64,000 nt of DNA from a virus, in the IMG/VR virus record IMGVR_UViG_3300005613_000019, positions 33,992-97,991 of that record; one strand, written 5' to 3'. Both the position numbers and the translations under genes were made by a program. How positions within the stretch are numbered: the stretch's first letter is position 1; every line of letters starts with the position of its first letter. The notes beneath the pieces were generated by a model. The model had not been told where the DNA came from. It saw nothing but the letters and a program-made list of their open reading frames with translations, and ran no database searches. This document shows positions 6,824-63,648 of this stretch, piece after piece.

Positions 6824-7141
6824 TTAATTTAAATATTTTTCTATTATAGCCTCAAGACTGTCATCTAAATCAAAATAATTACTAGCTGTAATAACCCAAT
6901 GACCTGTACATATACGGTCCAATACAGACTTCATCCAATACTCTGAACCTAAACTTACATTAACAACGTTAAGCTTGTTAGCTTCCCTAACAAGCTTAAC
7001 CCCATTTATATACCTTACAGATGCCTCAAATGCCCTACGAAATGCCTCAGACTTTGACCTTATTATATAAGTAAAAGCAGTCATGTCATGAAACACGACT
7101 GCTTTGTTTATAAAATCATTACTCACTACGTAATACTTCAC
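6824..7141 (-). CDS. Hypothetical protein
   Basis: 105 residues, GTG start (7139-7141) after a strong AGGGAGGG site that lies inside the preceding gene, so the two overlap by 23 bases and are probably coupled. Mixed alpha/beta, no motif recognised. It carries a perfect 14-bp hairpin at 6968-7000. Confidence 0.6.
   Translation of the reverse strand: MKYYVVSNDFINKAVVFHDMTAFTYIIRSKSEAFRRAFEASVRYINGVKLVREANKLNVVNVSLGSEYWMKSVLDRICTGHWVITASNYFDLDDSLEAIIEKYLN
6968..7000. repeat. Hairpin, 14-bp arms, 5-nt loop, intragenic
   Basis: Perfect inverted repeat inside the gene at 6824-7141. Confidence 0.9.
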
Positions 7142-7316
7142 TGAAATCCCTCCCTACCTCAAAAGATATTACTTCCCTCAACATACCAAACATAATAAAA
7201 ACATCTATTAACCCTAAGACAACCTCAGAATTATAAACTATAAAATCGTCATCGCCCATAATAGAGTCTACTAATAAAAAACTTTTATCCCTTATCTTTA
7301 AACTTAAGTTCTCCAC
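7119..7316 (-). CDS. Hypothetical protein
   Basis: 65 residues, starting MENLSLKIRDKSF. No domain recognised. Its 3' end holds the ribosome binding site of the next gene, so both are likely expressed together. Confidence 0.5.
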   Translation of the reverse strand: MENLSLKIRDKSFLLVDSIMGDDDFIVYNSEVVLGLIDVFIMFGMLREVISFEVGRDFSEVLRSE

Positions 7317-7321
7317 AATAC

Positions 7322-7420
7322 TTATTTATCTTTCTTATCCTTCTTCTTAGAATCTTTATCTTCCTTTAAATCCTTTACCGGACCTAAAACCTTTCCATCA
7401 CCTTTACCAGTCTTCTTCAT
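7322..7420 (-). CDS. Very small Lys-rich protein
   Basis: 32 residues (MKKTGKGDGKVLGPVKDLKE...), about half Lys/Asp. The ATG at 7418-7420 overlaps the TGA of the Mu F-like gene as ATGA (7417-7420), which supports real translation by re-initiation. Function unknown; a small DNA- or head-associated basic protein is possible. Confidence 0.55.
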   Translation of the reverse strand: MKKTGKGDGKVLGPVKDLKEDKDSKKKDKKDK

Positions 7421-8502
7421 AATACTCTCTCCATAGTCTCTACATCAAAATATACACCGTCAACATCTACTACCTTCCTACCATCAAGATAGTAGATGTC
7501 ACCATCTACTATCTTTCTCTCGATAATAGAATTAGACAACTCCTCGTAATTATCACTCGATAACCACTCAACTAAATAATCAATAGGTGAATATGAACCA
7601 TAATACATATTATGTACATATAATACTCCACCATCCTCAACTATTACTTCACTAGTTAAATTCTTGAACTTCCCCCTCAAGTTTATAAAATGAACTTCTT
7701 CCAAACTACTGTTTGGAAGAAGTTCTACTAAGTCTACTAAATACTCAGTAGGAGCATTTATAACCTTAACATCACCTATAAAAACAGATCTATTATCTAT
7801 CTCTAAACCATTAACCTTAGACCGATCCCTTATCACAGGTATAAACTCACCTAAACAATTTCCATGTATTAAATACCTGCCAGATCCAAAAAGATCACAT
7901 AAACTAAATACACTGTAAATATTACCGTTGAAAGCACTACATAAAGGACACCCATCTAAACACTTAAACTTGCACTCCGTAAAGCCTAAATCCTTTAAAG
8001 ACATTAACTGAGCTAAAGAATCTATTATCCCATGATCTATGCCAACACTACTAGTTAAGTACTTTACCATGTACTTCTCATTTGAAGACACTATTAAATC
8101 AATCTCCTTAAAAGCTACACCAGTTAACTTCTTAGACTTTATCTCTAAAAAATTGTAATTGGATAATATTCTTCTCTTTACTTCAACATAATGATCAAAA
8201 TATTGACCATTTCCTAAACAACTGTCCTTAGCATACTCACATAAATCATCAGTTAAACCATTATCATATAACTCAATGTCCGGCTTGTTAACTAAATCTT
8301 TGTAAGAGTGTATTCCAGATAATTGAAAATTTAAACGACCTCTAGGCTTGTCTACCCTAGACATTAACTCCGCTGAACCATCTCCTACCAAAAAACTGTC
8401 AAATTCCTTTAACTCTTCAACTTCAGGATATGAATCTAGCATATCCTGAAGTTGCTTGTCTAATAACTCTTTAGATAATTCCCCACACTTTTTAACATCC
8501 AT
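7417..8502 (-). CDS. Mu gpF-like minor head protein
   Basis: 361 residues. A segment reads CPLCSAFNGNIYSVF (Cys185, Cys188) followed by RYLIHGNCLGEFIPV (His213, Cys216), the Cys/His signature of the phage Mu F / SPP1 gp7 head-morphogenesis family. It sits immediately after the portal gene, the classic place for this protein, which enters the head and may aid DNA ejection or assembly. The rest is unlike known members and may be a phage-specific extension. Contains three perfect hairpins (7486, 7692, 8418). Confidence 0.7.
   Translation of the reverse strand: MDVKKCGELSKELLDKQLQDMLDSYPEVEELKEFDSFLVGDGSAELMSRVDKPRGRLNFQLSGIHSYKDLVNKPDIELYDNGLTDDLCEYAKDSCLGNGQYFDHYVEVKRRILSNYNFLEIKSKKLTGVAFKEIDLIVSSNEKYMVKYLTSSVGIDHGIIDSLAQLMSLKDLGFTECKFKCLDGCPLCSAFNGNIYSVFSLCDLFGSGRYLIHGNCLGEFIPVIRDRSKVNGLEIDNRSVFIGDVKVINAPTEYLVDLVELLPNSSLEEVHFINLRGKFKNLTSEVIVEDGGVLYVHNMYYGSYSPIDYLVEWLSSDNYEELSNSIIERKIVDGDIYYLDGRKVVDVDGVYFDVETMERVL
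7486..7515. repeat. Hairpin, 13-bp arms, 4-nt loop, intragenic
   Basis: Perfect inverted repeat in the Mu F-like gene. Confidence 0.9.
7692..7725. repeat. Hairpin, 15-bp arms, 4-nt loop, intragenic
   Basis: Perfect inverted repeat in the Mu F-like gene. Confidence 0.9.
8418..8454. repeat. Hairpin, 15-bp arms, 7-nt loop, intragenic
   Basis: Perfect inverted repeat near the start of the Mu F-like gene. Confidence 0.9.
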
Positions 8503-8507
8503 CTTAG

Positions 8508-10361
8508 CTACCTCACATCAGAACCACCAGGACCAGGACTATCTAATGACATGTCAGAAGGTCCTGTTCCGTCTGCTGAGCCTGGAGGACCAGCCATACC
8601 TGGTTCCGTATCCCCACCAAGACCTCCACCGCTAGAAGGCAACCCAGACGAACCTGGAGGTCTCGCCCCTCCTCCAGCTGTTCCAGGAGGCTTACCCTTT
8701 TGCATGTTCTTCTGCTCAAATTTGCCCTTTAAACCACCTAATTCTTTATTAAGTATATGCTCCCTCTCAGCAAACTCTTTGGCCGATTTAGTAGTCTCTT
8801 CCTTCCAGTCTAACCCAGCTATAGATCCAACACTGTCTAACGATATGTCAAATCCAAAATTCCTTAACTGAGAATATGCAGTCAATAACTCAGAATCTAC
8901 AGCAGGATCTAACTTGTTCCTCCATTTAAGCCTTGGCTTAATATATAGATTAGAATCCTGCTTCTCCTGAGCAGTCCTCTTAACTCTATATCTGTGAGCT
9001 ACCTCAGAGGGTTTTGACTTGGTCCAATCATTTATCTGAATAATAGGTTGAAAAAACTTCGGGAGTATCCAAGTGTTCTCAAAAAACTGACGCATGGACA
9101 AAAGTCTTCGTAAGAAGACTTGCAATCCGCTCTTGGCAGAGGAAAAGGTTGTCTCCCCCGTCATAAAGCTCTTAGATAAGCCTAGAGCTAAGAGCTTTAC
9201 TTGCTCAATCGTGCTGTGCTCTCGTGAGAGAGTCACAGCACGTTCGTTGATTCCTACAGTCTCGAATTGTATACCATAATTATAAATCAACCACGATCCA
9301 GGATCAATTTCACTCTGCATTAGCAGCCTTTGAAGATTAGCTTCAGCCTCTGGGCCTGGAATCCATCCTGAAGCCTGGTCCCCAATTTTGGCCACTCTTA
9401 ACGGGCTAGCAGCACGCCTAAAAGTTTGGATGGTGGAATTATAGACTGCGTCTTCCACCATCCAAATCCTCCACATACGGCTAGCAAGGCTTACACCCCT
9501 TTCATCATAGGGGTGTAATTTCCTCGGAATATATGAACAATTAAGTGGTGAAAGTCTGATTTTTTGTCTTGCTAAAACTTTTGAAACAAATTCAGAAGGA
9601 AGTTTTTGTCTCAACTCCTGAGACTCAGGAGTTGTATCCAACAACATATTTCTAAGATTATCATCTGGTATAAAATAAATAATTGGATCCATATCAATAA
9701 TAGGAGAATCCTGAATATCAATATAATCTGGATCATGAAAACCTATATAAGACCATTTGTTAGTCTTATCATCAAAAAAATTATGAGGGAGAACCTCACC
9801 CGTTACTAAATACTCTTTAACCATACTTTGTAGTTTTTCTAATAGAAAAACATCATCAGCCATGTCTTCAAGTTCGTTTTTAAGAGTTTGGTCACTTTGA
9901 TTTTCAAGAATGATGTCAAATTCTGAAACCATCATTTGAGAGTACATATCAACGGCAGTACCAAAAACTGGATCATACTTATAAAACATTCTCCAATATT
10001 TATTAGCAACTGCTCGATCATGAGGGTAGAATTGTCTTTCAGGAGAATCAAATTCAGGTAAATAGGGTCTTTGTGTATGAAAATTTGAAGATCCATAACC
10101 TCCAGACATAGATGACCCACCAGTAAAAGGAGCAAACACGTCTGCCTTTTTAGATCCTACAGCTAGAGTATGCCCCTCTGGGAGAACTTCTCTAGCCATT
10201 TCTTGTCTAATAGAATCTTGGTTAGATGTAACCAATCTAGGTTGCATAGACTCAGCTCTGGCCCTCATACGATCCCTAAAATCATCCGAAGCACCAATTC
10301 TCGCGTTAGCTATATTTGATCGTTCTCTGGCTAGTTCTTTAACATCTTTTTTATAGGACAT
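8508..10361 (-). CDS. Portal protein
   Basis: 617 residues. The core (about 110-520) has the usual portal pattern: ANKYWRMFYKYDPVFGTAVD, LQSMVKEYLVTGEVLPHNFF, FHDPDYIDI, and the tail-proximal helix region before QVFLRRLLSMRQFFENTWILP. The final 75 residues are Gly/Pro/Ser rich and probably disordered. Twelve copies are expected to form the DNA entry ring and dock the terminase. Position between terminase-side genes and Mu F-like protein agrees. Confidence 0.8.
   Translation of the reverse strand: MSYKKDVKELARERSNIANARIGASDDFRDRMRARAESMQPRLVTSNQDSIRQEMAREVLPEGHTLAVGSKKADVFAPFTGGSSMSGGYGSSNFHTQRPYLPEFDSPERQFYPHDRAVANKYWRMFYKYDPVFGTAVDMYSQMMVSEFDIILENQSDQTLKNELEDMADDVFLLEKLQSMVKEYLVTGEVLPHNFFDDKTNKWSYIGFHDPDYIDIQDSPIIDMDPIIYFIPDDNLRNMLLDTTPESQELRQKLPSEFVSKVLARQKIRLSPLNCSYIPRKLHPYDERGVSLASRMWRIWMVEDAVYNSTIQTFRRAASPLRVAKIGDQASGWIPGPEAEANLQRLLMQSEIDPGSWLIYNYGIQFETVGINERAVTLSREHSTIEQVKLLALGLSKSFMTGETTFSSAKSGLQVFLRRLLSMRQFFENTWILPKFFQPIIQINDWTKSKPSEVAHRYRVKRTAQEKQDSNLYIKPRLKWRNKLDPAVDSELLTAYSQLRNFGFDISLDSVGSIAGLDWKEETTKSAKEFAEREHILNKELGGLKGKFEQKNMQKGKPPGTAGGGARPPGSSGLPSSGGGLGGDTEPGMAGPPGSADGTGPSDMSLDSPGPGGSDVR
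9425..9466. repeat. Hairpin, 14-bp arms, 14-nt loop, intragenic
   Basis: Perfect arms inside the portal gene; smaller hairpins at 9211-9241, 9491-9518 and 9612-9634 in the same gene. Confidence 0.85.
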
Positions 10362-10364: not shown

Positions 10365-10862
10365 TTAGTCTTTCTCAATCATTAAATATATAGAATCAAA
10401 TGACTCTTTAGTCATATTATCAGGAAGGTTCAATTCATTTATTGAAAATAAATGCAATTGAACCTCTGAGTCCCCTATATAATAAAACTCATACCATTTT
10501 TGTTTCTTAAGTTTTACTTCAGCTAACAAGTCTTTATAGTCTTCATTAAAATTTAACAATAATGTTTTGACTTCATCTTCAAAACCCTGCATTATTTGTA
10601 ACTTACCGTTAGCCCTCACATAAGAACCATCTACTTTTACTAAATAAGAGTCTAATAATTCGAGTCTTTTTTGATCATACTGTAAAGATTCTTCAGTAGG
10701 CTCAAGAAAACTATCTCGAATTTGAATCAAATTCTCTACCTCTTTTTTAAGAATTTCAATGTTTTGCTGTATTTTTATATGAACAGCAACAGCGCACTTT
10801 ATTTGTGCGCTGTTGCTGGAAGTGAGGAATTCCAATAATTTTTGAACTTCAAAGTTTTTCAC
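10365..10862 (-). CDS. Hypothetical coiled-coil protein upstream of portal
   Basis: 165 residues, largely helical (KIQQNIEILKKEVENLIQIR; VKTLLLNFNEDYKDLLAEVK). The stop lies 3 bases from the portal start, so it is co-translated with the portal. The C-terminal third has mixed character. No family recognised. A GC-rich perfect 14-bp hairpin (10784-10818) falls near its start and could affect translation. Confidence 0.6.
   Translation of the reverse strand: MKNFEVQKLLEFLTSSNSAQIKCAVAVHIKIQQNIEILKKEVENLIQIRDSFLEPTEESLQYDQKRLELLDSYLVKVDGSYVRANGKLQIMQGFEDEVKTLLLNFNEDYKDLLAEVKLKKQKWYEFYYIGDSEVQLHLFSINELNLPDNMTKESFDSIYLMIEKD
10784..10818. repeat. Hairpin, 14-bp GC-rich arms, 7-nt loop
   Basis: Perfect inverted repeat near the start of the gene at 10365-10862. 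Confidence 0.9.
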
Positions 10863-17176: not shown

Positions 17177-18001
17177 CTAACCGTAATGATTAAAACCATC
17201 CCTAATAAGCAAAAAAGAAGTAGAAACAGTTACATTAGTATCATTAACATTCACATTCATACGAGGTATAAAGTCAGTTCCAGCAGTTAGAGGTATTGGA
17301 ATTTCAAATTTTTGTGTAGAAACACTTGTACCGTTTGTTGTAATAGATCCTTCATCAACTAACCTAGAATATTTACCATAATCCCTAACATAAATTCTTA
17401 ATTCAGCGAAATTAGCAACTTTAGTTACTAAGCTAACTCTACTCCACAAAACATACGCAGTATAATTAGCAGGACATGTAAATAAAGCATTAAGGAAATT
17501 ATTTTTACCGTTATTTGCGTAAGCTTTTACATCCGTATCTACATCAGGTTTACCATTAGTAATTCCGTTTATTGCTACAGCTGCAGAGCTGTAGCAATAA
17601 ACGTCTCCAGCAAAGCCTGTACCTACTGACGGAGTTGTAGAAGAATCTTCATTAGTTAAACTAAATACTCTGCACAACGGAGTTGTTAAAGAAGCTGTAG
17701 TTTGACCTGTCAAATTAATATCTTGAACAGTCCAATTTAAATTAGCATCTAATCCTATTATATTAACTGGTTGAGTATCACCATTATCATCACTAGATAT
17801 ACTATCAATTATTGCACTACCGTCATTAGAAAAAGTATAATTAGTATCTCCTAAAGACGCACTTCCATATTCCCAAACATCATGAAACACAGCATCATTA
17901 TCTATAGTTGTTTTACCAAACTGGTTCCAGGTGAAAGCACCTGGAACCAGTCCTCTTGAAACACGATGAATATAACCTGGCTTAAAGGGTAAACCTATCA
18001 T
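17177..18001 (-). CDS. Hypothetical virion protein
   Basis: 274 residues, Asn/Thr/Ser rich beta-type protein (MIGLPFKPGYIHRVSRGLVP...). Its start overlaps the stop of the preceding gene by one base. Probably a head-fibre or tail-associated structural protein, by position. Carries two of the best hairpins in the window: 17566-17603 (17-bp arms) and 17920-17951 (14-bp arms). Confidence 0.55.
   Translation of the reverse strand: MIGLPFKPGYIHRVSRGLVPGAFTWNQFGKTTIDNDAVFHDVWEYGSASLGDTNYTFSNDGSAIIDSISSDDNGDTQPVNIIGLDANLNWTVQDINLTGQTTASLTTPLCRVFSLTNEDSSTTPSVGTGFAGDVYCYSSAAVAINGITNGKPDVDTDVKAYANNGKNNFLNALFTCPANYTAYVLWSRVSLVTKVANFAELRIYVRDYGKYSRLVDEGSITTNGTSVSTQKFEIPIPLTAGTDFIPRMNVNVNDTNVTVSTSFLLIRDGFNHYG
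17566..17603. repeat. Hairpin, 17-bp arms, 4-nt loop, intragenic
   Basis: Perfect inverted repeat in the virion gene at 17177-18001. Confidence 0.9.
17920..17951. repeat. Hairpin, 14-bp arms, 4-nt loop, intragenic
   Basis: Perfect inverted repeat near the start of the same virion gene. Confidence 0.9.
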
Positions 18002-26512: not shown

Positions 26513-26800
26513 TTAAACTCTTTTCAAAATAAAGTTTGTTACAATTATCTCCTTAGTAATACTACGTATTTTTAATTTATTTAAATCTGAAGGAATTTTA
26601 TATTTGACTCCGTCAATATAAAATTCATATCCTAAAACATTAGTACAGTAATATTTCAAAACTTTTAAAACAGCTACATTAAAAAACTCAGCCCCTTTTT
26701 TATAAGAAGCTGAGTTTACTAAAATCATCCTGCCTACCGATTTTCCTTTATCGTTCCTAATTAAAGCATCTTGTTGATATGAATTTGTTTCTAAAACCAT
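26513..26800 (-). CDS. Hypothetical protein
   Basis: 95 residues, MVLETNSYQQDALIRNDKGK. Short beta strands with a basic C-terminus (KEIIVTNFILKRV). No domain recognised. In operon with the gene at 26803. Confidence 0.5.
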   Translation of the reverse strand: MVLETNSYQQDALIRNDKGKSVGRMILVNSASYKKGAEFFNVAVLKVLKYYCTNVLGYEFYIDGVKYKIPSDLNKLKIRSITKEIIVTNFILKRV

Positions 26801-31377: not shown

Positions 31378-31399
31378 ATTATAACCTCCTTTTAAAAGT

Positions 31400-47856: not shown

Positions 47857-48177
47857 TTAATCCTTTTCTAATGACTTTGGTATTTCTAATATCTGATAAG
47901 GTTGTGCATGTTCTTCGAACACGCATCCCTTTAACACTATTACGTCTTCAAGATGCTCCGAATCAAACCTTCGACAAAGCTCAGGTTTGTGGTCATGTAT
48001 AGAACATTTATTATTTTTTAGGTGTGGACAAGGATTATATTGAATTAAAATGTTTTTCTCTGGCAATACTTCGAAACCTCTGGTTTCGAAGTATTGCTTT
48101 AGGTCTTTATCGAAGTCAGACGATATTTGAAATACTAGATATTTACAACATCTCCCACATTGTTTACACTTAAGCAT
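47857..48177 (-). CDS. YkgJ-family Cys-cluster protein
   Basis: 106 residues. CKQCGRCCKYLVF (4-16), CPHLKNNKCSIHDHKPELCRRF (split across 50-71) and GCVF form the Cys signature of the YkgJ/Fe-Zn chelating family. Biochemical role of the family is uncertain. Perfect 16-bp hairpin at 48063-48097. Confidence 0.75.
   Translation of the reverse strand: MLKCKQCGRCCKYLVFQISSDFDKDLKQYFETRGFEVLPEKNILIQYNPCPHLKNNKCSIHDHKPELCRRFDSEHLEDVIVLKGCVFEEHAQPYQILEIPKSLEKD
48063..48097. repeat. Hairpin, 16-bp arms, 3-nt loop, intragenic
   Basis: Perfect inverted repeat in the YkgJ-family gene. Confidence 0.9.
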
Positions 48178-48184: not shown

Positions 48185-48910
48185 TTATTCAGGTATCTGA
48201 CAAGTTGTTAAAACATTACTAGGCAAAGCATCTATTAAATGAGTATGCAACTCAATTGCAGGAATAAGGAGCGAGACACCCTGGTGTCTCGCTCCTATGG
48301 CCTGATTAATACCTATAACTTTACCGTTCCTATCAATCGTAGGACCTCCACTCATGCCTGGATTTAAATGGTTGTCTACTTGTATCCATTTAAATTTATT
48401 TGAAGAATTTAGTTGGTATTCTGTTGAAGATACTACACCCTCTGTTAATGAAAAGTTAAAAGGCCAAGGATGTCCTAAACTTAAAATATGTTCTCCTCGT
48501 TCTACTTTTCTATAAAATTCAAACTCAAGAAAAGGTAAAGCATGTGCCTTTATTTTTAAAATTGCAACGTCAAATTCTGGTAAAAGTACCTTTTTAACAA
48601 CCTCATAAGAACTACCGTTTTCAAACGTTACTTTAATTAACGGATCTATCAACTTTAAAGTTGAAACTATAACATGTACATTAGTTAATAAATACCCGTC
48701 AGATGTAATTACAAAACCTGTACCTATTGAGTATAGTTCTGGTGTTCCTGTAACGGACTCAAATACCTTTATTAAGCAAACGGATTGCATAGCCTTTTCA
48801 GCTACTACGGTCCATTCGGGGTTTACATTTACTTGAGGCATCGGTAAACACCCGTTTAATGAGAAAAGTAAAAAAATTGATAGGATTAAGGATGAGTTTA
48901 AATATTTCAT
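48185..48910 (-). CDS. Lipoprotein trypsin-like serine protease (DegP/HtrA type)
   Basis: 241 residues. Lipobox LNGC (Cys21). Catalytic triad: TNVHV (His79), FDVAIL (Asp114), NPGMSGGP (Ser187), the HtrA order and motifs, without a PDZ domain. Predicted to be lipid-anchored in the host envelope. Role in infection is open: superinfection exclusion, degradation of envelope proteins or virion processing are guesses. Hairpin 48267-48296 inside. Confidence 0.8.
   Translation of the reverse strand: MKYLNSSLILSIFLLFSLNGCLPMPQVNVNPEWTVVAEKAMQSVCLIKVFESVTGTPELYSIGTGFVITSDGYLLTNVHVIVSTLKLIDPLIKVTFENGSSYEVVKKVLLPEFDVAILKIKAHALPFLEFEFYRKVERGEHILSLGHPWPFNFSLTEGVVSSTEYQLNSSNKFKWIQVDNHLNPGMSGGPTIDRNGKVIGINQAIGARHQGVSLLIPAIELHTHLIDALPSNVLTTCQIPE
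48267..48296. repeat. Hairpin, 14-bp arms, 2-nt spacer, intragenic
   Basis: Perfect GC-rich inverted repeat in the lipoprotein protease gene. Confidence 0.9.
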
Positions 48911-49517: not shown

Positions 49518-49976
49518 TTAGTCAGTTATAATTACTCTCTCTTTAGGCCAATAAGGTAAAATCTTCTCCATTCGGTTTTTCATTCTTTTTATAGATTTAA
49601 AAGGAACGCTATGCACGTTCCGTTGCATAGCGTTCTCTACACTACACTCACATCGAACTATATCAATGTCGTCTGTATGATTCATATAAATTTGAGCATA
49701 TCGAATATAAGGCGACATTTCATGGAGCCTTATATTCGTATTATCTACTATTAACAATCCTATAATAGGATTTTTTAAAGAGTTAATAAACTTTTTGTAA
49801 CAATATTTGTGAGCTTGATCTAGTTTAGATGGATCAAAATTATAATTACAATTAGTATCAATAAAAAAGTCATCTGCGGAGCAGATGACTTTTGCATAAC
49901 CACTCGTAGGCTCAAGTTTATAAATATACGTAGACTTACCCGATCCAGGGATGCCCCTCATAATTACAATTTTCAT
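49518..49976 (-). CDS. Polynucleotide kinase-like P-loop kinase
   Basis: 152 residues. GIPGSGKST (8-16), ICSADDFF, LDQAHKYC, VDNTNIR and RNVHSVP match the AAA_33/N4BP2-type kinase family, relatives of the T4 Pnk kinase domain. It likely phosphorylates 5' ends of RNA or DNA; no phosphatase domain. May work with the RNA ligase at 33528. Hairpins at 49604, 49702 and 49865. Confidence 0.75.
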   Translation of the reverse strand: MKIVIMRGIPGSGKSTYIYKLEPTSGYAKVICSADDFFIDTNCNYNFDPSKLDQAHKYCYKKFINSLKNPIIGLLIVDNTNIRLHEMSPYIRYAQIYMNHTDDIDIVRCECSVENAMQRNVHSVPFKSIKRMKNRMEKILPYWPKERVIITD

Positions 49977-50967: not shown

Positions 50968-51285
50968 TTATTTAGACTCTTTAAGAAGTCTGACCTTATT
51001 CTTAAGGTCAGACTCTCTATGATAAGCTTTTTCATAATCCATTAAATATTGATAAACTACAGGATTGTTATTTTTCATATTTTCTAAATGTCTCTCATCC
51101 CTTTTATACATTTTAGGATGACTTACATATCCGTAACTTGCCTCAGATACTGTTAATTTAAAAATTAAAAACTTTATTTTAAGATTTAATTTATAATATT
51201 CTTCTGCAATAGATACATGCTCTAAATTATTAATGTCAAATTTAACTCCGCATTTTGTAAAAATATCAGTATTTATGTTTTTCAC
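50968..51285 (-). CDS. Hypothetical helical protein
   Basis: 105 residues, helical, Lys rich (LDYEKAYHRESDLKNKVRLL). Its stop is next to the start of the xxQV gene at 50966. No family. Confidence 0.5.
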   Translation of the reverse strand: MKNINTDIFTKCGVKFDINNLEHVSIAEEYYKLNLKIKFLIFKLTVSEASYGYVSHPKMYKRDERHLENMKNNNPVVYQYLMDYEKAYHRESDLKNKVRLLKESK

Positions 51286-51512: not shown

Positions 51513-51902
51513 TTAAATGTATATTCCTACCGTTTTAGCTAAATAATAAATTTGTAAATGATTTATGTTAATTACTAGATATAAAAAGTTAAGTAAAAAT
51601 ATAAAAATATTAAGACGTTTTTTAATTTTATAATTACTCTTTGAATAACTATCATATAAAATAATAGTGAAACCTATAAGTATACTTATCTTAGTAATTA
51701 TAAAAAGATTTGGGTCTAGTTTCAGAAGGTAATCCATTAAGGGATTACCTTCTGAAACTACATAATACCCAGTATCTAATTTTAAAATAATGTTTGATAA
51801 AACTGTAAAATAATAGGTAAATCCAGTGTCGATTAAATTTAAAATATTTAAAACTACTAACTGAATACTTAAACACTTTTTAGTATAAAATTTATTTAGC
51901 AC
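51513..51902 (-). CDS. DUF5658-like membrane protein
   Basis: 129 residues with about four TM helices. ILNLIDTGFTYYF and GNPLMDYLL followed by ITKISILIG match the DxxxT, NPxM and K motifs of the DUF5658 family. Function unknown. It holds the longest perfect stem in the window, 19 bp (51717-51760). Confidence 0.6.
   Translation of the reverse strand: MLNKFYTKKCLSIQLVVLNILNLIDTGFTYYFTVLSNIILKLDTGYYVVSEGNPLMDYLLKLDPNLFIITKISILIGFTIILYDSYSKSNYKIKKRLNIFIFLLNFLYLVININHLQIYYLAKTVGIYI
51717..51760. repeat. Hairpin, 19-bp arms, 6-nt loop, intragenic
   Basis: Longest perfect stem seen, inside the DUF5658-like gene. Confidence 0.9.
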
Positions 51903-52672: not shown

Positions 52673-52708
52673 GAAATATACCTCCAGCTTAAGCTGGAGG
52701 TATATTTC
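52673..52708. repeat. 36-bp perfect palindrome
   Basis: Perfect inverted repeat without spacer, intergenic, 15 bases past the stop of the xxQV gene at 52723. In RNA it would form a stable hairpin and may end transcription. Confidence 0.9.
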
Positions 52709-53480: not shown

Positions 53481-53659
53481 TACTTCTTATGAATTATATA
53501 ATATTCATTATCTTTTATTAAACCGTTTCTAATTAAATAAGCATCAATGTCAAGCTCCGTCTTGACATTGATGCTTCCTCTCCTTAAAACTAAACGCTTT
53601 ATAAAGCGTTTAGTTTTATTTTTATAAATATCTACTAAAAATAAAATATCAGAAGACAT
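53480..53659 (-). CDS. Small protein carrying two large palindromes
   Basis: 59 residues (MSSDILFLVDIYKNKTKRFI...). TAATG overlap with the protease gene and a GAGGAG site support it. Two hairpins fill over a third of it: 53539-53576 (16-bp arms) and 53585-53618 (34-bp perfect palindrome). Confidence 0.6.
   Translation of the reverse strand: MSSDILFLVDIYKNKTKRFIKRLVLRRGSINVKTELDIDAYLIRNGLIKDNEYYIIHKK
53539..53618. repeat. Two long palindromes in one 59-codon gene
   Basis: 53539-53576 (16-bp arms, 6-nt loop) and 53585-53618 (17-bp arms, no spacer), both perfect. Confidence 0.9.
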
Positions 53660-54547: not shown

Positions 54548-55203
54548 GACCTTTTATATCTTTATTTGTTGATAACTCGGGAAATGACTACTCTAACTAA
54601 TTCTAGCTCATTAAACCTCTAATAAGTACTAACAAGTAAAGAGGGACCCAAACTACGTTTGGGTCCCTCTACATCTATAAAGGGTGAGACACATCTTGAT
54701 AATATCTTTTGTAATATTTTTTTATATGACATTTTTGATGAAATATTGATGTGATTTTAATATTAAGGCTCTATATCGCTACGCGATATAGAGCCTCTTT
54801 GGTAGGAGCATTACTCAAAAAAGTAAACCTGTATTTTAAAAAATGGTCTTTTTTAAAAGAGGGTAAAAGCAACCCCCATACCCAGTGGGGTCCCCTCGTT
54901 GGACGGACCCCCCTATACCCGATATATCGTAGTCCAATCTATATCATACGGAATCCGTATGATATAGATTGACTCCTGATATATATTCCGTATGATATAG
55001 ATTGACTCCTGATATATATTCCGTATGATATAGATTGACTCCTGATATATATTCCGTATGATATAGATTGACTCCTGATATATAGGATTATAAGCTAGTC
55101 TAAAGCTAGTCTAAAGCACTAAACGTCTTATCTATACTCTGATACTCAATTAGGTTTAAACTGGATTGTAACGAATGCTAGGTAGGATTGAATTGAATGA
55201 AGG
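54548..55203. other. Non-coding hairpin and repeat region
   Basis: No gene supported. Contains perfect hairpins at 54640-54670 (14 bp), 54766-54796 (14 bp) and 54931-54975 (17 bp plus a bulged extension), then four 33-bp tandem repeats and an AGCTAGTCTAA direct repeat near 55090. Confidence 0.7.
54952..55083. repeat. Four tandem 33-bp repeats
   Basis: Units begin at 54952, 54985, 55018 and 55051; the last three are identical and the first differs by one base. The first unit also forms the right arm of a 17-bp hairpin. Iteron-like arrangement. Confidence 0.95.
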
Positions 55204-55674
55204 TTACTTACTATTAGAAGTTTGACCTATCATACATAGGGCCATAATAAGAGCAAAAATCCACCAAAAAATATCATGCAATTTAGCTGCTAACGTTTTC
55301 GGAAAACAAAATGATTGAACAGTCCAGACCACAAACCATAACAGAGTATTACTATGTTCACTCCAATTATGATCTATACTATAGTCCTTAATCCAGTACC
55401 AAGCAAAGATCATAAATACCACGGAGCCTATATGTTTTAATCCCGCGATACCTGAACTATCAGTCTTTTGTATACGGAGTTTAGGTATTGAGATTATGAT
55501 CATACGGATTGCCCTGTATAACAGGGCAATCCCTTTGCAAACAGTCTTCACAGTCCATTTCAGGACTGTGAAGACTGTAACGATTACCTTCCAAGTCAAA
55601 ACAATACCCTTCCAAAGCAGTTTGAAAAACTGCTTTGTTTTTGACGGTTTTGTCTTTGTCTTTGTTTTTGTCAT
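55204..55674 (-). CDS. Multi-TM membrane protein
   Basis: 156 residues. Basic start (TKTKTKTKPSKTKQ) then four hydrophobic segments. No family. It carries hairpins at 55506, 55541 (16 bp) and 55613. Coupled to the upstream acidic gene (14-base gap). Confidence 0.5.
   Translation of the reverse strand: MTKTKTKTKPSKTKQFFKLLWKGIVLTWKVIVTVFTVLKWTVKTVCKGIALLYRAIRMIIISIPKLRIQKTDSSGIAGLKHIGSVVFMIFAWYWIKDYSIDHNWSEHSNTLLWFVVWTVQSFCFPKTLAAKLHDIFWWIFALIMALCMIGQTSNSK
55541..55578. repeat. Hairpin, 16-bp arms, 6-nt loop, intragenic
   Basis: Perfect inverted repeat in the membrane protein gene at 55204; 12-bp and 11-bp ones flank it at 55506 and 55613. Confidence 0.9.
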
Positions 55675-55688: not shown

Positions 55689-56474
55689 TTATCTGGAAAA
55701 AACTTTTCCTTCATGGTCATACAGATCAATCGAACCCAAGTCTTTTGCAATTTGTGTCAACCCTTTTCCAAAATCGTTCCATTTACCATCCCAAAATCCT
55801 GCTCCGTGATTATTTTGAGTCAACCATAGGTCATAACCAAACTGTTCTTCAGTATTGCCGGTTTTATACATCGCCATGGCGATGTAAAACCGGTTTTGTT
55901 CAATGCAATCCAGAACGGATTCAGTCAACGTTGACTTTGACTCGGAGTCAAAGTCAACGTCTGGATCGTAATCGTCGTCAAGATTCTCGGTCATGTTCCC
56001 GTCTTCATCGTCTTTTGGAGTACTCCAAAAAGCACATTCGAAATAAGCGCTCAAGAGTTCATCGATATTAATTTCATCGTCACCTTCAAAATCAAGAATG
56101 CTCAACTTGTCTTTCAGGTGACATTCTTCCAAAGATTCAATCCAATCGTAAAATTCTTTTGGATTAACCGTAAAAACTTCACCGTTAAACGTTTCGGTTA
56201 GGGTATCATATCCTTCTTTTTCGAGGGTTTCATATCTTTCATCCTGTTCTTCACTTGTCATTTGACCCATGAGATGATCTTCTAGACATTCAAATGCGGC
56301 TTCCAAAGCTTTGTATTCGGATCGATCTGATATTGCAATAGCAGCGCCGGGAACATATCCTGATCCATCATGAACAACAGCAACACAAACAGTGTCTTCA
56401 AACAGATCAACAAACTGATCATCGTTAACCGTTAGCAAGCAAACATCTTTGAGCATATTTTTCATATTTTCCAT
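55689..56474 (-). CDS. Acidic hypothetical protein
   Basis: 261 residues, strongly acidic (DDDYDPDVDFDSES). C-terminal part YDLWLTQNNHGAGFWDGKWN resembles short phage early proteins of unknown role. GC content is higher than in the late block. Hairpins at 55858 and 55928. Confidence 0.55.
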   Translation of the reverse strand: MENMKNMLKDVCLLTVNDDQFVDLFEDTVCVAVVHDGSGYVPGAAIAISDRSEYKALEAAFECLEDHLMGQMTSEEQDERYETLEKEGYDTLTETFNGEVFTVNPKEFYDWIESLEECHLKDKLSILDFEGDDEINIDELLSAYFECAFWSTPKDDEDGNMTENLDDDYDPDVDFDSESKSTLTESVLDCIEQNRFYIAMAMYKTGNTEEQFGYDLWLTQNNHGAGFWDGKWNDFGKGLTQIAKDLGSIDLYDHEGKVFSR

Positions 56475-56846: not shown

Positions 56847-57422
56847 ATGGGTACTAATGAATATAAAGAATATTGGGAAACCGTTGAAAGCATTGCAAAA
56901 GATATAGTGGATTCCTCAACATTTGCAGAATTGGAAAACCACGATTGCCATGGCCGGGCATGGGAAACAGTAGACGGATCAGAGTACGTTAGCTATTATT
57001 ATAAAAATATAGTTGTGCTTGAATATACCGATAATGAGGATGCTTTCAACAGTACCGGCATGGGTCTTGATACCTCTAAAGGCTGGCGATCCATCCTAAC
57101 CCAAGTAGCGTTTTGTGCAATGTTACAAGACGTACAAGACAAAATTGAACGTCTCATATCAGAAAGAATCGAGAAAAAAGAAGAAATGATTGAACAATAT
57201 ACCGACCGCGCTAACGCGGAACGGGAATCTGGAACGGAAATCGAAATAGATATGCTCTTAGAGAGCATATCTATTTGTAACGAGAAATCCGGTATGGAAT
57301 ACTTTTTCCAGAATGATCAATATAATGAATTGATCAAGCGATACGAAGACAGTAACGTCGAGGTTTTCAATGGAGAAATGGACGTTGAAGATCTCATTTT
57401 GGCCGATCTGGTTAATTGGTAA
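56847..57422 (+). CDS. Hypothetical early protein
   Basis: 191 residues, ATG after AAAAGGAGCCAAGCAA. Acidic, with HDCHGRAWETVDGSEYVSYY and a coiled middle. No family named. Followed by a smaller gene and a strong terminator. Hairpin 57244-57276 inside. Confidence 0.6.
   Translation: MGTNEYKEYWETVESIAKDIVDSSTFAELENHDCHGRAWETVDGSEYVSYYYKNIVVLEYTDNEDAFNSTGMGLDTSKGWRSILTQVAFCAMLQDVQDKIERLISERIEKKEEMIEQYTDRANAERESGTEIEIDMLLESISICNEKSGMEYFFQNDQYNELIKRYEDSNVEVFNGEMDVEDLILADLVNW
57244..57276. repeat. Hairpin, 15-bp arms, 3-nt loop, intragenic
   Basis: Perfect inverted repeat in the gene at 56847. Confidence 0.9.
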
Positions 57423-57719: not shown

Positions 57720-57760
57720 AAACAAAACCGTGACAAAATGTCACGGTTTTGTTTTATCTT
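57720..57760 (+). terminator. Strong intrinsic terminator
   Basis: 16-bp perfect stem (57720-57735 / 57739-57754), 3-base loop, then TTATCTT. A/T-rich flanks let it also work on the minus strand, facing the transcript from 57952. Confidence 0.85.
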
Positions 57761-57916
57761 AATATATCGTTACACAATATAAATTCTAAAGGCTTTAAAT
57801 TTAGCATGTACTATAATACCTGTTTTCAGTTTAAAGCCCTCAGAATCCCCGCTAAGCTGGCCTAGCGGGGATTCTATCCTTATACAAGGCATATACACTG
57901 CATAAGTATGCAGTGT
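57720..57916 (-). ncRNA. Candidate small RNA with two hairpins and terminator
   Basis: A minus-strand promoter at 57923-57952 would start a transcript of about 195 bases that holds the distal part of a 16-bp hairpin (57889-57922), a GC-rich 13-bp hairpin (57842-57875) and ends at the strong stem 57720-57754. A 40-codon frame inside has no ribosome binding site. No RNA family recognised. Confidence 0.4.
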
Positions 57917-57922
57917 ATATGC

Positions 57923-58263: not shown

Positions 58264-58297
58264 ATAGGTTTTACTAAAACATTTTAGTAAAACCTAT
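58264..58297. repeat. Hairpin, 16-bp arms, 2-nt spacer
   Basis: Perfect inverted repeat between the 106-bp repeats and the terminator at 58312. Its ACTAAAA...TTTTAGT core recurs in part at 58362-58378. Confidence 0.9.
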
Positions 58298-58311: not shown

Positions 58312-58352
58312 GAGATTACTTTCCCCCCTAAGGGGGGAAAGTAATCTCTTTT
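58312..58352 (+). terminator. 17-bp stem with six G/C pairs and U-run
   Basis: Arms 58312-58328 and 58332-58348, 3-base loop, then TTTT. Insulates the next promoter from upstream transcription. Confidence 0.8.
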
Positions 58353-58384: not shown

Positions 58385-58447
58385 AACACCTAATTATCGG
58401 TAAACCGATAATTAGGTGTTGACATGGTTTGTTAGAATGATTATAAT
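58385..58447 (+). promoter_or_regulatory. Perfect sigma70 promoter with overlapping palindrome
   Basis: TTGACA (58419-58424), 17-base spacer, TATAAT (58442-58447). A 16-bp inverted repeat with a 4-base loop (58385-58420) ends on the first two bases of the -35, the position of a repressor operator. It could equally be one of the many hairpins of this genome. Confidence 0.8.
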
Positions 58448-58491: not shown

Positions 58492-59382
58492 ATGGATAAA
58501 AATCTAGAACAACTAATTTTAGGTGAAATCGTAATCCCTTCATACGCTGAAACAAACCAGCAAGTCACAAGGGACCTAGCAGATCAACTAGGAATTTCAA
58601 ATCTGCTAAACATGCCCCGCTGTAACTTCCGAAATTTGTTAGGGAAAGCCATAAAGCACGCTAACAGGCACCATAAAGACTTTGAAACTATTATGGTGCA
58701 TGAAGGACCAAACAAGATACAGTATGTAATAGTTAGAAAAGAGACAAGAGACAACGGCATTGATACAGACGGCAATGTCCTTAGAGATCCCGATCTAGGG
58801 GTTGAGGCAAGGTTTTATTTCTCTAAAGAAAATAGAGACAATAAAAAACCGGCCAATGAATGTATTAATTTCTGGTTTAACCCAAATCATCCCGTGGCAC
58901 GATACATTGAACAACAGTATTATAATCAAGCTGTTATTTTTTCAGCCGATGATATGAGAAGATCAACAAATAACATGCTGATTTCCCTAGGCGCAATCCA
59001 AATCACAAGAGGAAACGCTTGGTTTGCTCCAAAACAGCAAGAGGAATTGTTAAATAAATTAACATACTGGCTCAAACAAGTTGGATGTTTCGCTGCGCGA
59101 TACATCCAACTTGATGTAGGTCAAGTCAAGGAAAATCTGCAAAATGTATGCCAAGATGGATTGGCAACTACTTTGCAAGATCTTTTTAACCTCATTGAAC
59201 AACACAAGCTTGAATCAAATACAAGAAATTCAACCCTGGAAAAACGAATTGAAGATCTGAATAATCTCAAAACCACTATTAAACTATATACGGATGCAAT
59301 CGGCTGTGATTTGTCAGACCTCAATAATCAGGTTACAACCTGTGAAAATGATCTGGTTAACTTTATGACCGGTAAACAGTAA
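58492..59382 (+). CDS. Hypothetical early protein
   Basis: 296 residues from the ATG at 58492 after AAAAGGAGCAAGTAA. Starts with a YAETNQQVTRDLADQLGIS segment, a mixed middle, and a C-terminal coiled coil (residues 215-296). Under a perfect promoter, so probably highly expressed early. No family recognised with confidence. Hairpin 59077-59113 inside. Confidence 0.65.
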   Translation: MDKNLEQLILGEIVIPSYAETNQQVTRDLADQLGISNLLNMPRCNFRNLLGKAIKHANRHHKDFETIMVHEGPNKIQYVIVRKETRDNGIDTDGNVLRDPDLGVEARFYFSKENRDNKKPANECINFWFNPNHPVARYIEQQYYNQAVIFSADDMRRSTNNMLISLGAIQITRGNAWFAPKQQEELLNKLTYWLKQVGCFAARYIQLDVGQVKENLQNVCQDGLATTLQDLFNLIEQHKLESNTRNSTLEKRIEDLNNLKTTIKLYTDAIGCDLSDLNNQVTTCENDLVNFMTGKQ

Positions 59383-59418: not shown

Positions 59419-59528
59419 ACACCTAACCGACAATCTGACAGGCTTTAACACCCAAACCTATACCAAGGTATAGGTTTGGGTTAACGGTCTCTAGAATCCA
59501 TTCTAGCCTAGCTAGAATGGATTCTTTG
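59419..59528 (+). repeat. 3' double-hairpin cassette, copy 1
   Basis: Holds a 15-bp stem with 2-base loop (59450-59481) and a 15-bp stem with 3-base loop (59493-59525). Same layout, no indels and about 90 percent identity with 60032-60141. Follows the gene at 58492. Further hairpins at 59539-59566 and 59645-59671. Confidence 0.85.
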
Positions 59529-59754
59529 ACTATACAATACAAGTGTCTACTTTAGTAGACACTTGTGTAATAAAGTGTCTACTTTTTGAATACTATACAT
59601 TTAAAAAGATTGTCAACCAATATCTTATGCCAGTTAGTAAAAATTAATACTACTACTATGTAGTAGTATTATATTTTAACTTAGTCGTCAATATATTATT
59701 GACAATATTAAAAATAATGATTAAACTTATAATAATAACAAAGGAGCAAACCAA

Positions 59755-60031: not shown

Positions 60032-60141
60032 ACACCTAATCGCCAATCTGATAGGCTTTAACACCCAAACCTATACCAAGGTATAGGTTTGGGTTAATGG
60101 TCTCTAGAATCCATTCTAGCTAGGCTAGAATGGATTCTTTG
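60032..60141 (+). repeat. 3' double-hairpin cassette, copy 2
   Basis: Stems 60063-60094 and 60106-60138, offset by exactly 613 bases from copy 1. Probably a duplicated terminator or RNA-processing unit. Confidence 0.85.
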
Positions 60142-60498
60142 ATTATAACCCATTAACACAAACGTTTATTAATCTATTTTTTAATTAAGTGTATAAATAT
60201 ACAAAGTGCATAAAAAGGTTTTTTGTTATTCCCCCTATATACAAAAAGTAATAGTCAGGTTATGTAAAATATTGAAATCATTAAGATTTGATTTTTGGCT
60301 CTTTAAATCAACCGACTGCATAAATATGCAGTCGGTTGTGTATAAATATACATTATGAATATATGATTATTTACTGTTTGGTTAGATAAATAATATGTAA
60401 ATCCTTATAATTATTGGATTATATGTCTTAATATGATTGTGTATACGGATTATTGGATTAAGGGATTAAGGGATTATTGGATTAAGAGATTATGTATT

Positions 60499-60540
60499 GG
60501 AAGCCTATATGTCGTGAAGCGACATATAGGCTTCCTTTGA
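60499..60540 (+). terminator. 16-bp stem followed by T-rich tail
   Basis: Arms 60499-60514 and 60520-60535, 5-base loop, then TTTGA. Lies in the convergent zone. Confidence 0.6.
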
Positions 60541-60594: not shown

Positions 60595-60626
60595 GCCAAA
60601 AGCCCCGGAAAACCGGGGCTTTTGGC
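60595..60626. terminator. GC-rich 14-bp stem
   Basis: Arms 60595-60608 and 60613-60626 with an AAAA loop; includes CCCCGG/CCGGGG. Weak U-run on either side. Typical terminator stem in a convergent region. Confidence 0.6.
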
Positions 60627-62361: not shown

Positions 62362-62586
62362 TTAGTCTATTATTTGGATAAAACCTTTAGCTTCGAAACG
62401 CTTTATTGCATAAAGCGTTTCTTTATATGTCAAGATTTTACGGTCGAAGTAGTTTGACCATTTACTGAAAGTGTTAGTGTCTTCATTCCAATTATAGGTT
62501 TCCAACCAATAATTTCCATAGGGAGTGTTAGACATTTTAACAAGGGCAACCTTAAGTTTTTTATCGTAGTTTATCCAACTTTTCAC
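62362..62586 (-). CDS. Small hypothetical protein
   Basis: 74 residues, GTG start after AAGGAGAAAATTAA. KVALVKMSNTPYGNYWLETY. No TTGACA directly upstream. Hairpin 62395-62421 inside. Confidence 0.55.
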   Translation of the reverse strand: MKSWINYDKKLKVALVKMSNTPYGNYWLETYNWNEDTNTFSKWSNYFDRKILTYKETLYAIKRFEAKGFIQIID

Positions 62587-62853: not shown

Positions 62854-62891
62854 TTTCTTTTCCTTTCCTTTGTTTTGTCTTACCTATTTTT

Positions 62892-62920
62892 AATATAAGT
62901 CTTATAGTTTGGGTTGTCAA
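62892..62920 (-). promoter_or_regulatory. Repeated early promoter, copy 4
   Basis: TTGACA (62915-62920), 17-base spacer, TATATT (62892-62897), with the same spacer and leader as copy 2. Confidence 0.75.
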
Positions 62921-62928
62921 GGGTGTTT

Positions 62929-63030
62929 TTAATTCAATAGTTGTTTTTTGTTTCTATTTATTTCCTCATAAATCCTTTTCAGGGTTTGTTTTAATTTTCT
63001 TTGTTTTTTAAGATATTCTTTAGTTTTCAT
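62929..63030 (-). CDS. Small Lys-rich helical protein, paralogue of 61972
   Basis: 33 residues, MKTKEYLKKQRKLKQTLKRI.... Start 16 bases after the stop of the gene at 63047. Paralogy with 61972-62091 is clear at DNA level. Confidence 0.55.
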   Translation of the reverse strand: MKTKEYLKKQRKLKQTLKRIYEEINRNKKQLLN

Positions 63031-63046
63031 TTGAATTTTCCTTAAG

Positions 63047-63367
63047 CTAGAATAGGCTTTTTCTTTCAGTTTGAAGAAAGGCGACAACGTCTATATCTTC
63101 AGAAAATTGACTTTTAGTTACTTCCAGGACAATACGTCCGGTGGATACTAGTGATCTAGTATCGCCGGGATAGAGATCTTTACAAAGGGACGAAATAGTT
63201 ACCGCTATTTCGTCCTCGGTAGGGACTCGGTATGAATTATCATGCCAAATAGACCATTTCCATTCATTTTTCACAAAAACGGAATGAAAGTCATGCGCTA
63301 GCCTATCCACATTAGCATAATATTTAAATTTAGCTTCCATTATTTCGTCTTTGGTTAGAGTTTTCAT
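63047..63367 (-). CDS. Hypothetical protein, paralogue of the 38812 gene
   Basis: 106 residues. FHSVFVKNEWKW, YRVPTEDEI and SLVSTGRIVLEV align with the plus-strand protein at 38812-39162. TAATG overlap with the upstream gene. Hairpin 63188-63215 inside. Confidence 0.6.
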   Translation of the reverse strand: MKTLTKDEIMEAKFKYYANVDRLAHDFHSVFVKNEWKWSIWHDNSYRVPTEDEIAVTISSLCKDLYPGDTRSLVSTGRIVLEVTKSQFSEDIDVVAFLQTERKSLF

Positions 63368-63648
63368 TATTCAACCTCTTCCCAAGTTTCGAGATCTGTA
63401 ATACCTGCTTGTTCGGCCATGAATTTTTCATCATAACCATAAAATCCCCAACAGGAGTCAAGCTCTTCGTTAGCTTGCTGCTTACAACATTTGCAGACGT
63501 TTACGGTTTTGAGGACAAAACCGTAAACTTCCCCATTTTGAAAAAAGACAACTTCTTCTGAAGAGTAGTTGTCGAAGTGTACTGCTTCTTCATCGACGTA
63601 AATTTCAAAGAGCATATCATCTTTTTGGAAAACTTTAATAGGTTTCAT
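63367..63648 (-). CDS. Hypothetical protein with CxxC
   Basis: 93 residues from the ATG at 63646-63648 (AAGGAGAAACCGAA). VNVCKCCKQQ in the middle, acidic C-terminus. Hairpin 63499-63528 lies before the Cys motif. Promoter at 63692-63720. Confidence 0.6.
   Translation of the reverse strand: MKPIKVFQKDDMLFEIYVDEEAVHFDNYSSEEVVFFQNGEVYGFVLKTVNVCKCCKQQANEELDSCWGFYGYDEKFMAEQAGITDLETWEEVE

What the first reader, a model, noticed from the sequence alone, without database searches (positions are those of the whole stretch)
6968..63528. Genome-wide perfect short-loop palindromes, mostly inside genes
I count about eighty inverted repeats with arms of 11-19 bp and usually 2-8 nt loops, most without a mismatch. 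Each stem has its own sequence, so this is not a dispersed element family but a recurring structure. Most lie inside coding sequences (six in the 1.1-kb DNA ligase gene, four in the portal, 19 bp in a DUF5658-like gene, two filling a 59-codon gene). They are almost absent from 1.3-6.9 kb and from 11-17 kb. Random expectation for 14-bp perfect arms with tiny loops in 64 kb is far below one. Candidate causes: template-switch repair by the phage replisome turning quasi-palindromes into perfect ones, or selection for hairpins as RNA-processing, pausing or ssDNA signals.
Basis: partly seen in the sequence, partly recalled or inferred. Interest (0 to 1): 0.88.

Follow-up and report, generated by a model that had tools for sequence, protein, structure and literature searches.

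The report
Phage genome full of coding palindromes
A metagenomic phage genome carries about a hundred perfect 11-19 bp hairpin sequences, each different and most lying inside working genes; they look like the result of DNA replication repeatedly copying one hairpin arm onto the other, a pattern known in hairworm mitochondria but which I found described in no phage.

Summary
The window has 80 perfect inverted repeats with arms of 11 bp or more; eight dinucleotide shuffles give 0-3, and none with arms of 13 or more. The whole 98-kb record has 99, 80 of them wholly inside ORFs. About 640 kb of relatives and other phages has one in-ORF hairpin of 12 bp or more, against 59 here. Stems share no sequence beyond chance. 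The excess peaks at arm 14, loop 3. In 26 of 31 cases alignable to homologues the hairpin involves no indel, and its arms encode residues as conserved as the rest of the protein: overwritten sequence, not insertions. Sites are either near-perfect or background-like, all codon registers are used, pairing just beyond stems is depleted, one duplicated hairpin has an exactly inverted loop, and two loci hold arm/anti-arm/arm triplets. This matches arm homogenisation by polymerase template switching, filtered by protein constraint, as proposed for nematomorph mitochondrial coding palindromes. An excess of sense-strand G.U over A.C mismatches (15:1) leaves selection on mRNA hairpins open. No close relative was found, so one-step origin is inferred, not shown.

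The parts
6968..7000 (.). perfect IR arm14 loop5, genic
7486..7515 (.). perfect IR arm13 loop4, genic; part of arm/anti-arm/arm triplet 7463-7515
7692..7725 (.). perfect IR arm15 loop4, genic
8418..8454 (.). perfect IR arm15 loop7, genic
9164..9199 (.). perfect IR arm12 loop12 in portal; 12 encoded residues identical to most relatives
9425..9466 (.). perfect IR arm14 loop14 in portal, conserved WMVEDAVYNSTIQ
9612..9634 (.). perfect IR arm11 loop1 in portal
10784..10818 (.). perfect IR arm14 loop7, genic
17566..17603 (.). perfect IR arm17 loop4, genic
17920..17951 (.). perfect IR arm14 loop4, genic
23760..23790 (.). perfect IR arm14 loop3, genic
23812..23839 (.). perfect IR arm12 loop4 in conserved VLGNHDY motif
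23926..23958 (.). perfect IR arm13 loop7, genic
25402..25429 (.). perfect IR arm13 loop2 in terminase, conserved AIDELARLS
26593..26626 (.). perfect IR arm12 loop10, genic
27869..27894 (.). perfect IR arm11 loop4, genic
28239..28270 (.). perfect IR arm14 loop4, intergenic
28900..28940 (.). perfect IR arm11 loop19, edge of an ORF
29137..29168 (.). perfect IR arm15 loop2, intergenic
30205..30239 (.). perfect IR arm14 loop7, genic
30247..30280 (.). perfect IR arm12 loop10, genic
31399..31440 (.). perfect IR arm18 loop6, intergenic
33072..33097 (.). perfect IR arm11 loop4, intergenic
33752..33782 (.). perfect IR arm14 loop3 in RNA ligase gene
34626..34654 (.). perfect IR arm13 loop3 in RNA ligase gene
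34768..34798 (.). perfect IR arm11 loop9 in RNA ligase gene
35003..35036 (.). perfect IR arm15 loop4, short ORF or intergenic
35522..35557 (.). perfect IR arm11 loop14, intergenic
35770..35800 (.). perfect IR arm14 loop3 in DNA ligase
35848..35878 (.). perfect IR arm14 loop3 in DNA ligase
36023..36057 (.). perfect IR arm12 loop11 in DNA ligase
36081..36113 (.). perfect IR arm14 loop5 in DNA ligase
36601..36636 (.). perfect IR arm17 loop2 in DNA ligase
39972..40003 (.). perfect IR arm13 loop6, genic
40107..40140 (.). perfect IR arm15 loop4, genic
40889..40919 (.). perfect IR arm14 loop3 in D12-class adenine methyltransferase gene
42072..42102 (.). perfect IR arm14 loop3, genic
43449..43473 (.). 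perfect IR arm11 loop3, genic
45470..45504 (.). perfect IR arm16 loop3, genic
45950..45983 (.). perfect IR arm15 loop4, genic
46140..46168 (.). perfect IR arm14 loop1, genic
48063..48097 (.). perfect IR arm16 loop3, genic
48267..48296 (.). perfect IR arm14 loop2 in trypsin-like peptidase gene
49604..49635 (.). perfect IR arm12 loop8, genic
49702..49738 (.). perfect IR arm12 loop13, genic
49865..49893 (.). perfect IR arm13 loop3, genic
50987..51014 (.). perfect IR arm12 loop4, genic
51717..51760 (.). perfect IR arm19 loop6 in DUF5658-like gene, the longest
52673..52708 (.). perfect IR arm18 loop0, intergenic
53539..53576 (.). perfect IR arm16 loop6 in 59-codon ORF
53585..53618 (.). perfect IR arm17 loop0 in 59-codon ORF
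53614..53646 (.). perfect IR arm11 loop11 in 59-codon ORF
54640..54670 (.). perfect IR arm14 loop3, intergenic
54766..54796 (.). perfect IR arm14 loop3, genic
54935..54971 (.). perfect IR arm18 loop1, genic
55506..55532 (.). perfect IR arm12 loop3, genic
55541..55578 (.). perfect IR arm16 loop6, genic
55613..55637 (.). perfect IR arm11 loop3, genic
55928..55960 (.). perfect IR arm16 loop1, genic
57244..57276 (.). perfect IR arm15 loop3, genic
57720..57754 (.). perfect IR arm16 loop3, intergenic; terminator-like, T-rich 3' flank
57842..57875 (.). perfect IR arm13 loop8, in a weakly supported ORF
57889..57922 (.). perfect IR arm16 loop2, in a weakly supported ORF
58264..58297 (.). perfect IR arm16 loop2, intergenic
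58312..58348 (.). perfect IR arm18 loop1, intergenic, terminator-like
58385..58420 (.). perfect IR arm17 loop2, intergenic
59077..59113 (.). perfect IR arm12 loop13, genic
59450..59481 (.). perfect IR arm15 loop2, intergenic; duplicated at 60063-60094 without change
59493..59525 (.). perfect IR arm15 loop CTA; duplicate of 60106-60138 with inverted loop
59539..59566 (.). perfect IR arm13 loop2, intergenic; arm/anti-arm/arm triplet with 59573-59583
59554..59583 (.). perfect IR arm11 loop8, second half of the triplet
59645..59671 (.). perfect IR arm12 loop3, intergenic
60063..60094 (.). perfect IR arm15 loop2, copy of 59450-59481
60106..60138 (.). perfect IR arm15 loop TAG, copy of 59493-59525 with loop inverted
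60309..60338 (.). perfect IR arm14 loop2, intergenic or very short ORF
60499..60535 (.). perfect IR arm16 loop5, intergenic or very short ORF
60595..60626 (.). perfect IR arm14 loop4, intergenic, terminator-like
62395..62421 (.). perfect IR arm12 loop3, genic
63188..63215 (.). perfect IR arm11 loop6, genic
63499..63528 (.). perfect IR arm13 loop4, genic

Best explanation
These are coding palindromes made and kept perfect by a DNA-level process. When a short imperfect inverted repeat folds back during replication, the polymerase switches template and copies one arm onto the other, so the arms become exactly complementary; occasionally the loop is flipped. The process acts wherever a small hairpin can form, irrespective of gene or codon register, and purifying selection keeps only products the encoded protein tolerates. 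Shown here: the palindromes, their size class, absence of indels, two-state perfection, lack of a sequence family, restriction to this phage among those examined. Inferred: that template switching is the agent, that it is ongoing, and that this phage or its host has an unusually active version of it. Some intergenic members probably also serve as transcription terminators.
For: Stems unrelated to each other. 26 of 31 homologue-aligned hairpins have no indel and arm residues as conserved as background (0.45 and 0.43 vs 0.40). Placement in genes uniform (KS p=0.94); codon registers 32/26/22, whereas building hairpins by synonymous change alone would put about 3-8% in the 3:3 register. Protein-compatible sites split into 37 perfect and 17 one-mismatch (0.2 and 0.8 expected) plus a shuffle-like remainder. 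Pairing at the second position beyond the stem is depleted (10 of 80 vs 26; no depletion for 6-7 bp arms), as expected if isolated mismatches are copied through. A duplicated hairpin has identical stems and an exactly reverse-complemented loop, CTA vs TAG; spacer inversion is a reported product of template switching (PMC8604942). Arm/anti-arm/arm triplets at 7463-7515 (no indel against homologues) and 59539-59583. Density is highest in non-coding and early-gene sequence, lowest in virion genes. Published yeast events have the same size, e.g. a 16-bp arm made from a 5-bp arm in one event.
Against: No close relative was found, so no single switching event was seen. Sense-strand mismatch bias (G.U 15, A.C 1) is not predicted by a strand-neutral process. 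The realised fraction at protein-compatible sites varies from 0-0.16 (virion region) to 0.42 (right end), which protein constraint alone does not explain. It is also unexplained why relatives with similar G+C lack the pattern. One inverted loop is a single case.
Confidence: 0.6

Rival explanations
1. The hairpins are selected as mRNA (or coding-strand) structures, for example to protect, pause or mark transcripts, and selection keeps the pairing perfect.
For: In genic stems of 12 bp or more with one transition-type mismatch, sense G.U outnumbers A.C 15:1 while the mirror-image transversion mismatches are balanced 9:7; baseline G.U:A.C in short stems is about 1.2. Narrow size class, arm 13-16 and loop 2-4. 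Stem G+C 0.42 vs flanks 0.32, with a G-C loop-closing pair in 45 of 74. Stems unchanged in a duplication whose flanks diverged.
Against: No shared loop or stem motif and no Rfam match. Registers do not follow ease of synonymous construction. Hairpins occur at any position in genes and in intergenic DNA. Relatives with homologous genes lack them. Strand-biased C-to-T mutation could give part of the G.U excess.
Confidence: 0.27
2. A mobile palindromic element or insertion family such as Rickettsia palindromic elements, REP/MITE or byp-like elements.
For: Many hairpins inside genes that leave frames open.
Against: Stems share no sequence above chance; hairpins align to homologues without insertion.
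Confidence: 0.02
3. Intrinsic transcription terminators or attenuators.
For: Several intergenic ones (57720, 58312, 60595) look like terminators.
Against: Most hairpins lie inside ORFs at uniform positions, and their 3' flanks have ordinary T content (at most 5 T in 8, mean 2.8).
Confidence: 0.06
4. Assembly or library artefact from fold-back reads or chimeras.
For: The record is from IMG/VR and the reads were not available to check.
Against: Artefacts would insert sequence and break frames; here frames stay open and align to homologues without indels at conserved residues.
Confidence: 0.03

Closest known systems
Coding palindromes of Nematomorpha mitochondrial genes (PMC6649704, PMC10380579)
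   Same: Many perfect inverted repeats of unrelated sequence inside protein genes, both arms coding conserved residues, almost no imperfect intermediates, overlapping hairpins with direct repeats, absent from some genes, all three codon phases used; template switching or repeat conversion proposed.
   Different: Those arms reach 142 bp and occur in small animal mitochondrial genomes; here arms are 11-19 bp in a tailed-phage DNA genome, about one per kb over 98 kb.
Quasipalindrome template-switch mutation, first suggested by Ripley in bacteriophages (history cited in PMC8604942; also PMC3820800, PMC8794818)
   Same: Homogenised short inverted repeats of similar arm and loop size in coding DNA, with loop inversion.
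   Different: Reported as scattered events or single hotspots; here it would have marked a whole genome at about 80 perfect hairpins of 12 bp or more per 100 kb.
Bidirectional intrinsic terminators
   Same: Some intergenic members have stem, short loop and T-rich 3' flank.
   Different: Genic members lack T tracts and are not at gene ends.
Rickettsia palindromic elements and other palindromic insertions
   Same: Hairpins inside ORFs.
   Different: No sequence family and no insertion relative to homologues.

Membership tests
Coding palindromes (Nematomorpha type) | Numerous perfect inverted repeats of unrelated sequence inside protein genes | tested here: met
Coding palindromes (Nematomorpha type) | Both arms encode conserved residues, no insertion | tested here: met
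   26 of 31 without indel; arm identity 0.45/0.43 vs 0.40
Coding palindromes (Nematomorpha type) | Two-state identity, almost no imperfect repeats | tested here: met
   37 perfect, 17 one-mismatch, 4 two-mismatch at compatible sites
Coding palindromes (Nematomorpha type) | Long arms, up to 142 bp | tested here: not met
   longest arm 19 bp
Coding palindromes (Nematomorpha type) | Gain and loss between related species | tested here: inconclusive
   absent from all relatives found, but these are only about 50% identical in conserved proteins
Template-switch homogenised quasipalindromes | Clustered multi-base change in one arm on one branch | not testable with these tools
   no close relative found in viral contigs or genome contigs
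Template-switch homogenised quasipalindromes | Loop (spacer) inversion between related copies | tested here: met
   one case, CTA vs TAG in 59493/60106
Template-switch homogenised quasipalindromes | Isolated mismatches removed, clean stem ends | tested here: met
   10 of 80 vs 26 expected at the second flanking position
Conserved mRNA hairpins under selection | G.U tolerated, A.C not, in the transcribed strand | tested here: met
   15:1, 13:1 with loops up to 8; post hoc and small
Conserved mRNA hairpins under selection | Same hairpin kept in relatives by compensatory change | tested here: not met
   relatives lack such hairpins almost entirely; no close relative available
Mobile palindromic elements | Shared element sequence | tested here: not met
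Intrinsic terminators | T tract after the stem | tested here: not met
   genic hairpins have at most 5 T in 8, mean 2.8; a few intergenic ones have T-rich flanks

The most novel reading that the evidence does not exclude
This phage lineage carries, or meets in its host, a hyperactive arm-conversion activity that acts as a genome-wide mutational drive towards perfect hairpins of a set size, or it uses about a hundred sequence-unrelated but size-matched hairpins in its mRNAs as a structural signal.
Probability: 0.35. Interest if true: 0.88.

Novelty: new variant of a known kind. Interest (0 to 1): 0.72.

Why it matters
If template switching is the cause, one phage genome holds about a hundred natural products of it, enough to measure its size range, strand bias and protein cost, and a phage system would be far more tractable than hairworm mitochondria for finding which replication defect does this. 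If instead the hairpins are selected, it is a structure-only, sequence-free signal spread through a phage transcriptome. Either way it shows how far synonymous freedom lets perfect hairpins coexist with conserved proteins: about a quarter of the protein-compatible 14-bp sites are realised here, against none in controls.

Tried and rejected
Shared motif or family among stems: none above random genomic words. Rfam: no match in the window. Insertion hypothesis: rejected by homologue alignments. Terminator hypothesis for genic hairpins: T content ordinary. Donor-arm test by amino-acid conservation: no 5'/3' arm difference. The A+C excess in the 5' arm (t=3.2) was first read as a sense-strand effect, but the 5' arm is the same on both strands, so it is a property of the palindrome, not of transcription. 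Paralogous copies within the record as a substitute for relatives: among the repeats listed I saw only the 59405/60018 pair carrying the same hairpins in both copies. Searches for relatives of the ligase, portal, RNA ligase and the 39194-40486 protein in viral contigs found none; the terminase alignment found none in genome contigs. The portal alignment was too variable to search with.
Full report
WHAT IS THERE. The window is bases 33992-97991 of a 97,991-bp IMG/VR virus record of a tailed phage: a terminase large subunit at 24071-26254 and a portal at 8508-10361. The terminase is 47-58% identical to other metagenomic contigs and 34% to Virus Rctr197k from a DAMO/AAA enrichment culture. A maximal-arm scan finds 80 perfect inverted repeats with arm >=11 and loop <=20 in the window; dinucleotide shuffles give 0-3. 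The rest of the record adds 19. With loop <=12 and arm >=12 the record has 80, 59 inside ORFs; about 640 kb of relatives and other phages (T4, G, Jenst, P-SSM2, phi14:2, Rctr197k, a 212-kb relative and fragments) has 12 in all and one inside an ORF. AT-rich relatives are also negative (21.5-kb contig, 34% G+C: none >=12).

ANATOMY. Against local shuffles the excess over chance rises from arm 8, peaks at arm 14 (18 observed, 0.0 expected) and ends at 19; the usual loop is 2-4 nt, mode 3, and longer loops are rare although loops up to 80 were allowed. Stems are richer in G+C (0.42) than their flanks (0.32). Stems share no more sequence with each other than random genomic words do. Of 99 in the record, 80 are wholly inside ORFs, at uniform positions along genes. 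Density is 0.16-0.7 per kb in virion-gene regions, about 1.1 per kb in 28-54 kb genic DNA, and 2.2 (genic) and 5.1 (non-genic) per kb at 54.5-61.5 kb.

NOT INSERTIONS. For 31 genic hairpins a homologue can be aligned across the whole hairpin. In 26 there is no indel. Residues encoded by the arms are as conserved as the rest of the protein (identity 0.45 and 0.43 vs 0.40). In the portal, hairpin 9164-9199 encodes KLLALGLSKSF, the same residues as in most relatives; the terminase hairpin encodes the conserved IDE(L/W)ARL stretch; hairpin 23812-23839 covers a conserved VLGNHDY motif. Sequence was overwritten in place.

TWO-STATE AND REGISTER-BLIND. I enumerated every site where the existing protein could be encoded with a perfect hairpin using synonymous codons alone. 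This phage has 119 such sites for arms >=14 in 76 kb of coding DNA, close to the density in AT-rich controls (198 in 143 kb); 30 are realised here and none in controls. At sites compatible with 13 bp, 37 are perfect and 17 have one mismatch (0.2 and 0.8 expected), while the rest resemble codon shuffles. The register that ties third positions together is hard to build synonymously, 3-8% of compatible sites in AT-rich controls, yet holds 22 of 80 genic hairpins (arm >=11, loop <=20) and 6 of 32 with arm >=14 and loop 2-8. So some hairpins must have changed amino acids: the process that made them did not follow codon structure.

SIGNATURES OF COPYING. (i) A 130-bp segment is duplicated at 59405-59534 and 60018-60147 with 91% identity. 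Both hairpins have identical stems in the two copies while flanks differ, and the second hairpin's loop is CTA in one and TAG in the other, an exact inversion. Inversion of the spacer between perfect arms is a reported product of template switching in yeast coding genes, with arms and spacers of the same size (PMC8604942), and loop inversions are reported in rRNA histories (PMC8794818). (ii) At 7463-7515 and 59539-59583 an arm, its complement and the arm again lie in a row; at the first, homologues align without indels. Overlapping hairpins with resulting direct repeats are also reported in Nematomorpha. (iii) Beyond the terminal mismatch the next pair is complementary in 10 of 80 cases against 26 expected, while chance hairpins with 6-7 bp arms show no such depletion: isolated mismatches near the end seem to be copied through until pairing truly fails.

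WHAT ARGUES FOR AN RNA ROLE. In genic stems of 12 bp or more with one transition-type mismatch, the sense strand has G.U in 15 and A.C in 1, while the two transversion classes, mirror images across strands, are balanced 9:7. With loops up to 8 it is 13:1, against about 1.2:1 in short chance stems. Allowing for strand-biased mutation I estimate this as nominally significant but not decisive; it was found post hoc. The 5' arm is A+C-rich (t=3.2); because the 5' arm reads the same on both strands this is not evidence of transcription. A directional correction that takes the 3' arm as donor would give it, which is inference (a directional model with the opposite outcome is discussed in PMC8794818).

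MECHANISM. Most likely: a quasi-palindrome folds during replication, the nascent strand switches to the other arm, the arms become identical, and later mutations are erased the same way; protein constraint removes harmful products. Steps shown: overwriting without indels, perfection, an inverted loop, clean ends. Steps inferred: the polymerase switch, its recurrence, and its unusual rate in this phage. The gradient in realised fraction along the record (0.09, 0.09, 0, 0.16, 0.32, 0.42) could reflect expression class, replication geometry or relaxed codon selection; I could not separate these.

KNOWN OR NEW. The closest precedent is the coding palindromes of nematomorph mitochondria: perfect, unrelated, both arms coding, almost no imperfect copies, all phases used, with template switching or conversion proposed (PMC6649704). 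Template switching itself was first suggested in bacteriophages according to PMC8604942. My literature searches found no phage genome described this way, but most subscription papers are not held. I file it as a new variant of a known kind.

Noticed in passing
G001:C1:198772-203019, G002:C1:75763-78867, G003:C1:184021-187125 (loci L021, L022, L024, L026, L027): Portal genes of relatives are open frames of 1048-1432 codons with the portal split by long extra stretches, consistent with inteins; this window's portal is uninterrupted.
   Followed up: no
window 44430-45176, 50192-50970, 52703-52938, 53673-54433: Several tandem copies of a small-protein gene family, also spread on the opposite strand; relatives occur in contig L014.
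   Followed up: no
window 58046-58266, 54954-55084, 56522-56773, 21654-21797: Short recent tandem duplications, 98-100% identical.
   Followed up: no
window 61194-63996: Family of dispersed repeats, about 75-88% identical, between and across small ORFs.
   Followed up: no
window 57700-60640: Mostly non-coding stretch crowded with hairpins, 5.1 per kb outside genes in 54.5-61.5 kb; possible origin, terminator cluster or RNA region; no Rfam match.
   Followed up: partly
window 33528-34910 and 35605-36705: An RNA ligase gene next to an ATP-dependent DNA ligase gene, both hairpin-rich.
   Followed up: no
window 48185-48910 and 52905-53480: Two trypsin-like peptidase genes in one phage; a radical SAM gene at 46480-47442.
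   Followed up: no
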